Virus record (IMG/VR): IMGVR_UViG_3300013004_000041
Location: 17,061-81,060 of that record
Reading direction: 5' to 3' (one strand)
From: a virus
Length of the DNA stretch: 64,000 nt
Shown here: one piece after another, positions 34,610 to 40,445 of the stretch
How the letters are laid out: each line of letters opens with the position of its first letter
How positions within the stretch are numbered: position 1 is the first letter of the stretch
Notes under the pieces: generated by a model
The model's input: the letters and a program-made list of their open reading frames with translations, nothing else
Told to the model about the DNA's origin: nothing
The model's database searches: none
Program-made: the position numbers and the translations under genes

Positions 34610-35272
34610 TTACACCAGTGGAATCCAGTGTTGTTCCCATTCCTTTGGAATAAAGCGTAATGGAATTACGTCGTATGCCATTGTAATTCTTGGACCATCC
34701 CAGTCCCAATCTCCCATAGCATGTGGATGCCCTGTTTCAGAAAGAATTGCACGATTATTCTTATTGTGATTTTCTATTTCATTTTCAAATACACGATAAT
34801 GAGTAATAGATGGTTCAGCCTTTACACAATAATAACCGTGGAAGTACGGAGCACCATCTCCTCCATGTTCATGCCAGTCTAATTTTCCAATGTGGTTATA
34901 GTTTACGTTAAACCATCCTTGAACCATAAACTGCTCTTGAGTAAAATCTAATTCATAATAATCACAAGCATCCTTAGTCATATCACGAACTGCACGGAAA
35001 AGAGTATGAATATTAGGATCGTACATTTGAAAAACATTATACTTATTCCAGTTCATAGTAGTAATGCTTCCAGAATTATCCCACGGAGTATTATCATTAA
35101 GTTTTTGCTTAACAACCTCTCCTCTTTCAATTCTCTTATACTGATCTAAAAGAAATACTTCTAAATCTTCTAGATTATTGATGTCAATTTGTCTCTCAAA
35201 AAACTTATGTTCTTTGGTAGATTTACTTGTACTAGGCTGTGTTGCATCGCCATACTCTGATTGATTTTTCAT
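34610..35272 (-). CDS. 2OG-Fe(II) oxygenase-like protein (2OG-FeII_Oxy_5-like)
   Basis: 220 aa. The C-terminal half shows the double-stranded beta-helix signature: 'QGWFNVNYNHIGKLDWHEHGG' with an HxH pair in place of HxD, a distal His in 'GHPHAMGD', and Arg in 'GPRITMAYDVIP' for 2-oxoglutarate binding. This matches putative phage oxygenases of Pfam 2OG-FeII_Oxy_5, common in cyanophages. The first 30 residues are polar and probably disordered. The HxH variant may alter metal binding, so activity is not certain. It lies in the second modification cassette beside ferredoxin and glycosyltransferase genes. Confidence 0.7.
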   Translation of the reverse strand: MKNQSEYGDATQPSTSKSTKEHKFFERQIDINNLEDLEVFLLDQYKRIERGEVVKQKLNDNTPWDNSGSITTMNWNKYNVFQMYDPNIHTLFRAVRDMTKDACDYYELDFTQEQFMVQGWFNVNYNHIGKLDWHEHGGDGAPYFHGYYCVKAEPSITHYRVFENEIENHNKNNRAILSETGHPHAMGDWDWDGPRITMAYDVIPLRFIPKEWEQHWIPLV

Positions 35273-35280
35273 TTTTTATC

Positions 35281-36042
35281 CTATCTATATTTTTTTCTCA
35301 CCCAACGGTGCTTTTTGTAGAACCCATAAAGATAATTTCTTTTTCTTTCTACGTCCCAGATTCCTTGATTTTGTAAACTATGATCTATCTTTTTTTCCCA
35401 ATTAGCACGTTTAATTGGAATAAACTGAATAATAGGTGTTCCCTTTTTAATTGTACCTTCAAAATCTTTTCTTAAAAAGAATGTAACTACATTTCCACTA
35501 AACCATCTGTCTGAATCTTGAACTGCAGTCATAGTAAAGAATGGAAGGTCATATCTATTAGTTGGATGAGTAATCATTAAAGACCATCCATCTGGTAATT
35601 TGCATCCCCATCTCATGTCCCATAAAAAGTGTATAGGATAGCATCCTGATGGTACTGGGATCTCTAAATGGCCACGCATTTCGATTGGTCTTGGCTCGTC
35701 ATCTCCCCAAGTAACTTCTGGCTTATTTGGATCATCTGTTTTTTTAACATGAACATCACATGCAAGTGGTAACTGATATCCCATAGTTAGGGCATCAAAA
35801 AATGGCATACAGTGCTTAATGCTAATTGCAGCAGAGTCTGCTCCTTTATTCCAAGTGACACTAAGATCGTCTATATTGTCATGTAATTGGTATAAGGGTC
35901 TATCCTTCCACCAGTCTGGTAAATTGTCAATTGCTGCTACTGGTTCTGGTGTAAACTGATAAGCAGTTGAAGCCCAGAACTCTGCCGTAAGATTTTCCAT
36001 TTCTGGAACATCTTTATACATATCCTCTAACTTATCTCCCAT
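35281..36042 (-). CDS. Paralogue A of a phage-associated Trp-rich family
   Basis: 253 aa, paralogous to the next gene upstream. Shared landmarks in order: 'NLPDWWKDRPLY' near residue 40, 'SIKHCMPFFDALTMGYQLPLACDVHV', a 'HPTNRYDLPFFTMTAVQDSDRWFSGNVVTFFLRKDFEGTIKKGTPIIQFIPIKRANWEKK' block, and a basic C-terminus. This resembles a family of unknown function in cyanophages and other tailed phages (DUF6065-like in my recollection). The strict pattern of Trp/His/Asp and the beta-helix-like block suggest an enzyme or binding fold, but I do not know its role. Coupled to its paralogue by TAATG. Confidence 0.55.
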   Translation of the reverse strand: MGDKLEDMYKDVPEMENLTAEFWASTAYQFTPEPVAAIDNLPDWWKDRPLYQLHDNIDDLSVTWNKGADSAAISIKHCMPFFDALTMGYQLPLACDVHVKKTDDPNKPEVTWGDDEPRPIEMRGHLEIPVPSGCYPIHFLWDMRWGCKLPDGWSLMITHPTNRYDLPFFTMTAVQDSDRWFSGNVVTFFLRKDFEGTIKKGTPIIQFIPIKRANWEKKIDHSLQNQGIWDVERKRNYLYGFYKKHRWVRKKYR

Positions 36043-36755
36043 TACTTAAACACCTTCTTTTCCCACATAAAATTTTTATAAGATCCGCCAAACTTAGCCC
36101 TTAGTTTATACGAAATTGCTTTAAGAGCATGCATATCTGGCTTTTCTAATATTTCAGATCTAAACTCTTCTCTTTTATAAGGAATACATTGTACTAGGGG
36201 AGTGCCCTTTTCAATCGTACCCTTAAATCCTCTTTTTACTAAAAGAGAGAATGGTCCATCTGAGATGTACATATCGGTATCAATTATAGCAGGAACAATA
36301 ACAAAAGGCAAATCATCATGAAATGATGGATGGATAAACATAGTACTATATCCTTTTTCAGTTCCAATTACCCACATAGGGTGTACTCTAAAAATATCAT
36401 CTACATATAAATTTTTATCGTATGTCCATCCATCTATCTGCTCTCTGCTGTGCTTACCAATTACATCATTATGTATTGGATGTACTTGAACTTCAAGGCT
36501 TTCTCCAGTTGCATCAACATAAACATCACATGGAAACTTTAACATGTAACCCGTAACCATTTGATCTAAAATTCCTGGACACTTTTTAATTGTTTCATTA
36601 TATTGTCCACCAATTAATTTTCTTTCTCCCCCAACAAAAGGCTCTGTCTTTCTCCACCAGTGAGGTATATTCTTAGACATTGGTTCTGGATGTGGCGCAT
36701 ATTCAAAAGTAAACTCATCTTTTGGAATAAATTTAATATTTTTTTGTTTTGACAT
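36042..36755 (-). CDS. Paralogue B of a phage-associated Trp-rich family
   Basis: 237 aa. Same order of motifs as the next gene: 'NIPHWWRKTEPF', 'TIKKCPGILDQMVTGYMLKFPCDVYV', 'HPSFHDDLPFVIVPAIIDTD', 'FSLLVKRGFKGTIEKGTPLVQCIPYKREEF'. The two copies have diverged well below obvious identity outside these blocks, so the duplication is old or the copies are specialised. Starts after GAGGAA, 3 nt past the upstream stop. Function unknown. Confidence 0.55.
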   Translation of the reverse strand: MSKQKNIKFIPKDEFTFEYAPHPEPMSKNIPHWWRKTEPFVGGERKLIGGQYNETIKKCPGILDQMVTGYMLKFPCDVYVDATGESLEVQVHPIHNDVIGKHSREQIDGWTYDKNLYVDDIFRVHPMWVIGTEKGYSTMFIHPSFHDDLPFVIVPAIIDTDMYISDGPFSLLVKRGFKGTIEKGTPLVQCIPYKREEFRSEILEKPDMHALKAISYKLRAKFGGSYKNFMWEKKVFK

Positions 36756-37536: not shown

Positions 37537-38583
37537 TTAGTTATCTTTCGTATCGAAAACCAACATTGTTTCTGTAAAGAAGTTGTCGTACGGCTCACAG
37601 TTAATAGAGATAACATTGTCAATATAGTTTAATTCTGTTACGCTTGTAACTGCAATCCAGTCTTGATTAGAATAATCATAAACTTCATAAGATGTATCTA
37701 TATCTCTTGAAAGAACAAACTTATAAACATCATCTTTTCTTGCAAAGATCCAGTGTGTTGGAGAGAAAAGGCTTCCGTTGATGTTGTAAATCTTATCAAC
37801 AGTCTTTTCTTGTATCGCAACCACCTGAGTTTCAACAACTTCGATCCCGTCGAATGTTGAAGATGTCCATACTGCTGGATCAAATTGAGAAGTTCCTACT
37901 TCTGCGATATTTAGTCCTAGAAGTGTATCTCCAACTTGTAAAGAACCTGCAGTTACAATTCCTCCTGGAGTTCTAACACCAGTTGATGGTGATAATGAGA
38001 AGTAAGATCCGAAACCACCGTATCCTGCTGGAGCATGGCTAAAACCACCATAACCATGACCAAAGTTATGGTAGAAGCCACCATATGAGTGTGAGAAGTT
38101 GTGGTAGAACCCACCATATGAGTGTGAGAAGTTGTGGTAGAACCCACCATATGAGTGTGAGAAGTTGTGGTAGAAGCCATGGTAGAAACCTGCGTAATGG
38201 CTAAATGAGTGGTAGAAGCCATGGTAGAAACCAGCATAGTGGCTGAAACCAGCATAGTGGCTGAAGCCTGCGTAGTGACTGAAACCAGCATAGTGGCTGA
38301 AACCAGCATAGTGGCTGAAGCCTGCGTAGTGGCTGAAACCTGGATAAACATACTGATAGTAATTAATAGCAACGCTGGTACCAATATTAACTACGGTACC
38401 AGCGGTCACTGATTGTGTATTTATCTTTTGATCTAAGTTAGCATCAGAGGTAGTAGTGCTTGTCTCTGTATATGTTAACCCCTTTAATGTAAGTTCTGCC
38501 TGATACTGACTTCTTGTCATACCAGATAGGCTAGGTACAGAAACCTTTCTTATACCTCTATCACCAGTTCTTTGTAGTGCCAT
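37537..38583 (-). CDS. PASTA domain - His/Tyr/Gly repeats - Hint-like domain tail protein
   Basis: 348 aa in three parts. Residues 13-77 form a PASTA domain (VPSLSGMTRSQYQAELTLKG ... AGTVVNIGTSVAINYY), a module that binds peptidoglycan in bacterial kinases and penicillin-binding proteins. Residues 80-182 are tandem units GFSHYA and GGFYHNFSHSY. Residues about 194-348 resemble a Hint (hedgehog/intein) domain: S196 at the nucleophile position of a S-L-S-P-S-T-G-V block, RTPGG, LQVGDTLLG, S274-P-T-H277 as block B, and a C-terminal 'DNFFTETMLV' followed by F343-D344 instead of His-Asn. Self-cleavage at S196 is possible but the C-terminal splice residues are absent. AGGAG precedes the ATG. Confidence 0.7.
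   Translation of the reverse strand: MALQRTGDRGIRKVSVPSLSGMTRSQYQAELTLKGLTYTETSTTTSDANLDQKINTQSVTAGTVVNIGTSVAINYYQYVYPGFSHYAGFSHYAGFSHYAGFSHYAGFSHYAGFSHYAGFYHGFYHSFSHYAGFYHGFYHNFSHSYGGFYHNFSHSYGGFYHNFSHSYGGFYHNFGHGYGGFSHAPAGYGGFGSYFSLSPSTGVRTPGGIVTAGSLQVGDTLLGLNIAEVGTSQFDPAVWTSSTFDGIEVVETQVVAIQEKTVDKIYNINGSLFSPTHWIFARKDDVYKFVLSRDIDTSYEVYDYSNQDWIAVTSVTELNYIDNVISINCEPYDNFFTETMLVFDTKDN
38038..38346 (-). repeat. In-frame tandem repeats (18 bp and 33 bp units)
   Basis: The right part holds 18-bp units coding for AGFSHY (six in a row); the left part holds 33-bp units coding for GGFYHNFSHSY (three near-identical) plus mixed FYHGFYHN forms. The units keep frame, so copy number can vary without breaking the gene. 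High His, Tyr and Gly content. Confidence 0.9.
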
Positions 38584-38627: not shown

Positions 38628-40445
38628 TTATGAAGAGGCAAGGTCTCCAACAACAACGAAGGTGTTGGCTGCTCTCTTAATAATTGTCGCTCCAGACCAA
38701 GTAGTTCTTGTCTTAGCGGTTGGTGTTCCATTTACAGTTACACCTGATCCACCAGCAATTGTTACCTGTCCTGCAGCAACTTGAAGAACTTCAAGTCTTT
38801 GACCCACTGGCCAGAAAGAGTTATCTGCAGGAATTGTAAATGTTCCTGCTGAAGCAGAGTTATACTCAATAATCATATTGACATCGCTTGATACGAATGT
38901 ATATGCGCCTGTCTTTTGAGCAATGTCTGCCGTCTTATTAGCCTTTGTATCAAGTGTTGTTGAAAGTGCTGTTCCGTTTAATGTTACAGAAGATGATGCT
39001 GGAAGAGCAACTGTTCCTGTAAATGTTGGAGATGCTAACGGAGCCTTTAATGCAAGTGCATTAGTTACTGTAGTAGCATAATTTGCATCGTCTCCAAGTG
39101 CTGCAGCAAGTTCATCAAGAGTATTTAATGCTCCTGGCGCTGCTGCAATAACTGCATCAACTTCAGCCTTTACGAATGCTGTTGTAGCAATTTGAGTAGT
39201 GTTTGTGCCTACTGAAGCAGTTGGAGCAGTTGGTGTTCCAGTTAATGCTGGTGAAGCCAACGGTGCCTTTGATGAAACTGCAGTATCTGTATATGTGTTT
39301 GCAGATGCTATTGCATTTGTTCCTGCTGTGTCAGCATATGTCTTTGTAGCAAGTGCTGATGTGTCTGCAATACCATGAACAGATGTTGTTGCTGCTTCGT
39401 GTGTATCAAGATCTGAGACAACAGTTGCTAAAGTACCTTCTGCTGTATCAAGATCTCCCTGAAGTGTAGAAATATTTGATTCTGCAGTATTTACATCAGA
39501 CTGTAGGGTAGAGACATCAGACTGTAGGGTAGAAACATCTCCCTGTAAGCCAGTGATGCTTACTTCTGCTGTATCGAGGTCTCCCTGGATAGCAGAGATA
39601 TTTGACTCTGCGGTTCCAAGGCTTGTATTAATTGTTCCAATGTCTGTTTCTGCATCAGTAACTCTTGAAGTTAAAGATGATAGATCAGATGTAGTAGTAG
39701 AAATTGTTCCTTCTGCTGCATCTACTCTTGTGTCTAATGATGCAATTGCAGATTCTGCATTATCAACATCAGTTTGTAATGTTGTTATGTTTCCTTCTGC
39801 TGTAGAAAGATTAGTCTGCAATGACCCAACATCAGTCTGTAGTGTTCCAATGTTTCCTTCTGCTGTATTTAAATCTGTTTGCAGATTTGTAATATTTGTT
39901 TCTGCTGTTGCTAAATCGCTTGCAGTATCTGATAAAGTTGCTGCATCTGCATACCCCTGAGACTTAACCCAAAATGTTGTTGCAATTCTTGTTGAATTTT
40001 CGTTAGAGTCTGGGTTTGGTGCTGCTGGTGATCCAAAGAATGTTGGGGATGTCAATGGAGCCTTTGTAGATAAAGCATTAATAATCGTATTTCCAAAAGA
40101 TGAATCTTCGTCAATTGCTGTTGCAATCTCGCTCAAAGTATCTAATAGGGCTGGTGCTCCATCAATAATATTTCCAAGTTGTGACATTGGAATATTTCCT
40201 GTGCTATCAAGAGTTGCAACGCCGTTTGCTGATGCCTTCTCTGTTAACAAAATATAATCGTCTAAATTACCACCTAGGTCTTCTAGGTTCTTAAAGTAGG
40301 AGAGATCTTCCCAATGGTTAACACCGTCACCAATTTTAAATTGGTTTGTGTCAGTTTCAAATCCGATTTCTCCTGCTGCCAAAATTGGATCTGCATCTGT
40401 CCATTGCTGTGCAGTTCCTCTGCGTTGCTGCATTCTTGTTGCCAT
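38628..40445 (-). CDS. Tail fibre protein with Mtd_N-like N-terminus
   Basis: 605 aa. Residues 1-50 (MATRMQQRRGTAQQWTDADP, then AGEIGFETDTNQFKIGDGVNHWEDL) match the N-terminal domain of major tropism determinants and many tail fibres, which attaches the fibre to the tail. Residues about 165-340 are a trimeric coiled coil of NITTLQTDVDxAE-type units. Two 'KAPLASPTFTGTPTAP...ATTAFVKAEVDAVIAAAP' fibre repeats follow. The last 100 residues are a small beta domain shared with the 209-aa protein at 49643-50272. No reverse transcriptase or variable repeat is nearby. AAGGAGAG precedes the ATG. Confidence 0.8.
   Translation of the reverse strand: MATRMQQRRGTAQQWTDADPILAAGEIGFETDTNQFKIGDGVNHWEDLSYFKNLEDLGGNLDDYILLTEKASANGVATLDSTGNIPMSQLGNIIDGAPALLDTLSEIATAIDEDSSFGNTIINALSTKAPLTSPTFFGSPAAPNPDSNENSTRIATTFWVKSQGYADAATLSDTASDLATAETNITNLQTDLNTAEGNIGTLQTDVGSLQTNLSTAEGNITTLQTDVDNAESAIASLDTRVDAAEGTISTTTSDLSSLTSRVTDAETDIGTINTSLGTAESNISAIQGDLDTAEVSITGLQGDVSTLQSDVSTLQSDVNTAESNISTLQGDLDTAEGTLATVVSDLDTHEAATTSVHGIADTSALATKTYADTAGTNAIASANTYTDTAVSSKAPLASPALTGTPTAPTASVGTNTTQIATTAFVKAEVDAVIAAAPGALNTLDELAAALGDDANYATTVTNALALKAPLASPTFTGTVALPASSSVTLNGTALSTTLDTKANKTADIAQKTGAYTFVSSDVNMIIEYNSASAGTFTIPADNSFWPVGQRLEVLQVAAGQVTIAGGSGVTVNGTPTAKTRTTWSGATIIKRAANTFVVVGDLASS

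What the first reader, a model, noticed from the sequence alone, without database searches (positions are those of the whole stretch)
37537..38583. Hint (hedgehog/intein)-like domain at the end of a PASTA repeat tail protein
The last ~155 residues keep Hint block A (S196 at the nucleophile position, TGVRTPGG, LQVGDTLLG), block B (S274-P-T-H277) and a C-terminal DNFF-x4-V segment, but the final His-Asn is Phe-Asp. That fits a domain that could cleave its N-terminal peptide bond without splicing. Self-cleavage could release or covalently attach the PASTA-repeat part to an acceptor, as hedgehog does with cholesterol.
Basis: partly seen in the sequence, partly recalled or inferred. Interest (0 to 1): 0.7.

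Follow-up and report, generated by a model that had tools for sequence, protein, structure and literature searches.

The report
Phage tail protein with self-cleaving domain
A phage tail protein ends in a domain of the kind that lets hedgehog proteins and inteins cut themselves; in this widespread, apparently undescribed phage family the parts needed to cut on the front side are kept while those needed to splice are lost, so the protein probably clips off its own tail end.

Summary
The ORF at 38583-37537 (- strand, 348 aa) carries one PASTA domain, a Gly/Phe/His/Tyr-rich repeat tract (not PASTA repeats) and a C-terminal ~150-aa domain. AlphaFold (pLDDT 87, pTM 0.83) and Foldseek put that domain in the Hint fold: all 50 best PDB matches are BIL, intein or hedgehog Hint domains. 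About 77 distinct relatives were collected, nearly all from uncultured viruses, at the C-terminus of tail-region proteins. A distant group in jumbo phages keeps Cys1 and His-Asn. In the window's clade the nucleophile is Ser in 42 of 43 80%-identity clusters and the block B His is in all 43. The His-Asn pair is replaced, mostly by Phe-Asp. The one lineage that lost Ser1 also lost the block A Thr and block B Ser/Thr. So the clade looks selected for acyl shift and cleavage before S196, with splicing abolished. No sterol-recognition region follows (4 residues remain), so attachment to an acceptor is possible but unsupported; hydrolysis is the simplest fate. I found no description of this family in the papers searched, though some database entries are named "Hint domain" or "intein domain". 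New variant of a known kind; cleavage itself is untested.

The parts
37537..38583 (-). 348-aa phage tail-region protein: PASTA + aromatic/Gly/His repeats + C-terminal Hint domain
   Evidence: ORF; 143 of the fetched loci hold a homologue
38365..38544 (-). single PASTA domain (residues 14-73)
   Evidence: Pfam PF03793 E 5.9e-7, above curated cut-off
38014..38343 (-). low-complexity linker, GFSHYAGF / FYHGFYHNFSHSYG repeats (about residues 81-190)
   Evidence: translation; tandem repeats 38063-38179 and 38227-38340
37540..37998 (-). Hint domain, residues 196-348
   Evidence: AlphaFold pLDDT 87; Foldseek PDB and BFVD
37996..37998 (-). S196, putative N-terminal nucleophile (Hint position 1); the bond before it is the predicted cleavage site
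   Evidence: Ser in 42 of 43 80%-identity clusters of the clade, Cys in four jumbo-phage clusters; codons 41 TCN, 1 AGT
37753..37764 (-). Hint block B, S274-P-T-H277 (TxxH equivalent)
   Evidence: His in 47 of 48 clusters; S/T at 274 in 44 of 48
37552..37608 (-). Hint blocks F/G, S326-INCEPYDNFFTETMLV-F343-D344; Phe-Asp replaces His-Asn
   Evidence: alignment with C1...HN relatives
38628..40445 (-). upstream tail fibre gene (Mtd_N domain), conserved neighbour
   Evidence: Pfam PF18454 E 3e-14; gene order TF > HINT in most loci
35281..36755 (-). two downstream phrog_7084 / DUF6065-like genes, conserved neighbours
   Evidence: phrog_7084 E 7e-40 and 5e-30; present in 109 loci

Best explanation
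The C-terminal domain is a Hint autoprocessing domain that keeps the N-terminal half-reaction and has lost splicing. After folding, S196 attacks the preceding carbonyl (N-to-O acyl shift helped by H277, S274 and T201), forming an ester between the PASTA/repeat part and the Hint domain. Water, or another nucleophile, then resolves the ester, releasing the adhesin-plus-repeat part from the ~17-kDa Hint domain. Because His-Asn is Phe-Asp and there is no C-extein, neither Asn cyclisation nor splicing can follow. Shown here: the fold (by prediction), the domain's position, conservation of the N-side residues and loss of the C-side residues. Inferred: that cleavage occurs, that hydrolysis is the usual fate, and that it serves maturation of a tail adhesin in the virion.
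For: Model pLDDT 87 / pTM 0.83; all 50 best PDB folds are BIL, intein or hedgehog domains (BIL2 6y75 E 7e-7, hedgehog D46H 6tyy E 5e-5). Profile hits in PDB are led by the gp41-1 intein and a BIL domain, though weak (E 0.003-0.016). Pfam: 22 of 54 members match Intein_splicing, 13 Hint_2, 3 PT-HINT, 3 Hint at E <= 1. Ser1 in 42 of 43 clusters while neighbouring positions vary; block B His in all 43; a single lineage (L145/L146) lost Ser1, T201 and block B Ser/Thr together. Four kinds of TCN codon plus one AGT at Ser1 suggest selection on the amino acid. Tree: the jumbo-phage group is split off at 99/99; the C-side pairs in the Ser1 clade are FD, YD, KD, MD, HD, WE or YN. Thr B:7 and His B:10 act on the N-terminal bond (PMC4031507); hedgehog uses only the first acyl shift (PMC7664689).
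Against: No cleavage data. The block F Asp that affects N-site chemistry (F:4, PMC4031507) is Ser in this clade. Block B Thr is Val in 3 clusters. The residue before Ser1 is not conserved. A conserved Ser could have a purely structural role. No structure coordinates were available, so active-site distances were not measured.
Confidence: 0.6

Rival explanations
1. Catalytically silent Hint fold: the domain is a structural cap or assembly/trimerisation module of the tail protein, and Ser1 and TxxH persist for folding or packing.
For: F:4 Asp is Ser; the invariant NCEPYDNFF motif and C329 look structural (C329 persists even in L145/L146, which lost Ser1); block B Thr is Val in some clusters.
Against: Ser1 is near-invariant while positions -1, +2, +3 and +4 vary freely; its state in the jumbo-phage group is Cys, the other Hint nucleophile; the one lineage losing Ser1 also lost other N-side positions.
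Confidence: 0.27
2. Acyl transfer: the ester at Ser1 is resolved by a specific nucleophile, attaching the PASTA/FN3 part to another virion protein, a small molecule or a host-surface group (hedgehog-like).
For: Hedgehog with the same half-set of residues does this (PMC9163320); the N-terminal parts are adhesin-like (PASTA, FN3).
Against: Only 4 residues follow the domain, so there is no sterol/adduct recognition region; the Asp46-like position is Glu in 38 of 48 clusters and varies otherwise; no acceptor is evident.
Confidence: 0.1
3. Intein or BIL-type splicing or C-terminal cleavage.
For: Jumbo-phage relatives keep Cys1 and His-Asn and could do so.
Against: In the window F-D replaces H-N, and no C-extein exists: the stop codon comes 4 residues later.
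Confidence: 0.03

Closest known systems
Jumbo-phage tail-region proteins with C-terminal Hint (Alexandravirus, Yersinia phage fHe-Yen9-02, phage NCTB BN7874_136/132)
   Same: Hint domain at the extreme C-terminus of a virion/tail protein, TxxH, EPYDxxF-like motif
   Different: Cys1 and His-Asn kept, collagen-like N-terminal part in those checked, about 25-30% identity
Bacterial intein-like (BIL) domains
   Same: fold (best PDB matches), N-terminal nucleophile, no +1 nucleophile
   Different: BILs retain His-Asn and C-terminal cleavage (own knowledge); here Phe-Asp
Hedgehog autoprocessing domain (Hog)
   Same: Hint in the C-terminal part, TxxH, no His-Asn, only the first acyl shift expected
   Different: Ser instead of Cys nucleophile, no sterol/adduct recognition region, Asp46 not conserved as Asp
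Class 1 inteins (e.g. gp41-1)
   Same: fold and blocks A and B
   Different: no C-extein, no block G His-Asn, no homing endonuclease
UniProt entries of uncultured Caudovirales (A0A6J7WKC1 'Hint domain containing protein', A0A6J5NY54 'PASTA_pknB', A0A6J5MFV5 'Fibronectin type III')
   Same: same fold in BFVD at E 1e-13 to 1e-10; apparently the same family
   Different: database names only; no mechanism described that I found

Membership tests
HINT superfamily | Hint fold | tested here: met
   AlphaFold pLDDT 87 plus Foldseek prob 1.00 to BIL, intein and hedgehog
HINT superfamily | Cys/Ser at position 1 (block A) | tested here: met
   S196; Ser 42/43 clusters in the clade
HINT superfamily | block B T/S-x-x-H | tested here: met
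   S274-P-T-H277; His 47/48 clusters
Intein | C-terminal His-Asn (block G) | tested here: not met
   F343-D344
Intein | inserted between two exteins with a +1 nucleophile | tested here: not met
   stop codon 4 residues after D344
BIL domain | His-Asn kept, +1 nucleophile absent | tested here: not met
   His-Asn lost; met only by some jumbo-phage relatives such as NCTB
Hedgehog (Hog) | Cys1 nucleophile | tested here: not met
   Ser1 throughout the clade
Hedgehog (Hog) | SRR/ARR after the Hint domain | tested here: not met
   4 residues follow the domain
Hedgehog (Hog) | general-base Asp46 | tested here: inconclusive
   aligned by eye to E251, Glu in 38/48 clusters
Hedgehog (Hog) | cleavage with adduct formation | not testable with these tools
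   needs biochemistry
PT-HINT (pretoxin) | toxin domain following Hint | tested here: not met
   nothing follows
PASTA proteins | PASTA domain above Pfam cut-off | tested here: met
   29.8 bits against cut-off 23.2

The most novel reading that the evidence does not exclude
A phage version of hedgehog chemistry: the Ser1 ester is passed to a specific nucleophile, so the tail adhesin becomes covalently attached to a virion partner or to the host surface.
Probability: 0.1. Interest if true: 0.85.

Novelty: new variant of a known kind. Interest (0 to 1): 0.55.

Why it matters
If active, it would be a natural, phage-encoded Hint family that has kept only N-terminal autoprocessing, with a Ser nucleophile, mounted on swappable adhesin modules in tail-region genes of many uncultured phages. 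It would reveal a maturation step of phage tail proteins and supply new single-cleavage or acyl-transfer domains. The series of His-Asn, His-Asp, Tyr-Asn, Tyr-Asp and Phe-Asp relatives makes the loss of splicing testable.

Tried and rejected
Scan of 84,980 species genomes: no relative; the patterns used were from the C-terminal motif, so distant cellular copies could be missed. Sequence-only search of PDB with the single domain gave only chance hits, mostly PDZ; the family profile was needed. Class 3 intein mechanism through C329: rejected, because counting back from the C-terminus C329 does not align with block F:4 (that is S326) and Ser1 is kept. The downstream phrog_7084 gene was modelled as a possible partner enzyme: DUF6065-like, weak similarity to dUTPase folds, no clue to an acceptor. 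Papers on jumbo phages (PMC7824862, PMC7412058, PMC6143709) and inteins do not describe the family in the passages found. A bias to note: many relatives were found through the NCEPYDNF pattern, so that motif's invariance is partly built in; Ser1, T201 and H277 were not in the patterns of that first search, and a second search keyed on block B (which does contain the His) gave the same picture for Ser1 and the C-terminal motif.

Full report
The ORF and motifs. The finding lies on the - strand, 38583 to 37537, 348 aa. Pfam finds one PASTA domain at residues 14-73 (E 5.9e-7) and only a sub-threshold intein match at the C-terminus. Residues about 81-190 are tandem GFSHYAGF and FYHNFSHSYG units.

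Relatives. tblastn against annotated phages finds 33 jumbo-phage records at 24-34% identity, several annotated 'virion structural protein' and one 'putative phage tail protein, contains intein domain' (phage NCTB). IMG/VR gives about 140 loci, many overlapping, from two pattern sets; 77 distinct sequences remain with the jumbo-phage ones. In the full-length copies the domain sits at the C-terminus. N-terminal parts differ: PASTA, fibronectin III or Pro/Thr-rich, followed by different low-complexity spacers (FGAFGAF, FFPPFFP, PVIIAEP). Pairs of paralogues on one contig share the Hint domain more than the N-terminal part: for example 153/156 against 73/145 identical, and 112/158 against 95/350, so the domain behaves as a separate module.

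Is it a Hint domain? The AlphaFold model from 50 sequences has pLDDT 87 and pTM 0.83. All 50 best PDB matches are BIL, intein or hedgehog Hint structures with probability 1.00. Viral matches include entries named 'Hint domain containing', 'PASTA_pknB' and 'Fibronectin type III'. A profile from the jumbo-phage domains alone hits the window domain at 6e-18; the best of 5000 shuffles reaches 0.18.

Which half-reaction survives? In 48 clusters at 80% identity, position 1 is Ser in 42, Cys in 4 and lost in 2 (NCTB's short stand-alone Hint BN7874_135, and L145); block B His is present in 47. The four Cys1 clusters all end in His-Asn. The other clade ends in FD (29), YD (5), KD (3), and one each of MD, HD, YN and WE; L145 reads FY and one copy is truncated. 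The tree separates the two groups at 99/99; its root is a midpoint, so that Cys1/His-Asn is ancestral is an inference from inteins and BILs. L145/L146 lost Ser1, the block A Thr, the block B Ser/Thr and much of the C-terminal motif together, as a decayed copy would. Ser1 codons are 41 TCN of all four kinds and one AGT. Reviews place Thr B:7, His B:10 and F:4 at the N-terminal bond (PMC4031507), and state that hedgehog uses only the first acyl shift and that BILs lack the +1 nucleophile (PMC7664689). By that logic this clade keeps N-side catalysis and has lost C-side catalysis, except that F:4 Asp has become Ser.

Fate of the ester. Hedgehog uses a sterol recognition region after the Hint domain (PMC9163320); here 4 residues remain. 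Hydrolysis is therefore the default expectation, and acyl transfer to an acceptor remains open but unsupported.

Context. The gene follows a tail fibre gene with an Mtd_N domain and precedes phrog_7084 genes, often then a possible 2-oxoglutarate oxygenase and ribonucleotide reductase; variants of this order recur across most loci. The window is part of an 81-kb uncultured virus record with portal, head protease and major head genes.

Limits. No cleavage was observed; no coordinates were available for active-site geometry; presence in virions rests on annotation of distant relatives. The literature searched is open-access PMC only, so an earlier description elsewhere cannot be excluded.

Noticed in passing
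window 35281-36755: Two tandem phrog_7084 genes, conserved next to the Hint gene in 109 loci and also found in haloarchaeal HF1/HF2-type viruses and cyanophage S-RIM4; AlphaFold model pLDDT 90 with weak similarity to dUTPase-like folds and DUF6065.
   Followed up: partly
window 34610-35272: Protein with a His-rich HxHGG...H pattern resembling a 2-oxoglutarate/Fe oxygenase by eye (no Pfam hit), conserved downstream of the Hint gene in 38 loci.
   Followed up: partly
L081 (phage NCTB) 5444-5905 and 7269-10390: NCTB has three Hint proteins close together, one a stand-alone Hint lacking the N-terminal nucleophile but keeping His-Asn.
   Followed up: partly
L007/L041, L028/L030, L020/L066, L027/L070: Paralogous pairs on one viral contig with near-identical or similar Hint domains but different adhesin modules, suggesting module exchange or gene conversion.
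   Followed up: partly
L145, L146: Decayed Hint copies that lost Ser1, block A Thr and block B Ser/Thr together.
   Followed up: partly
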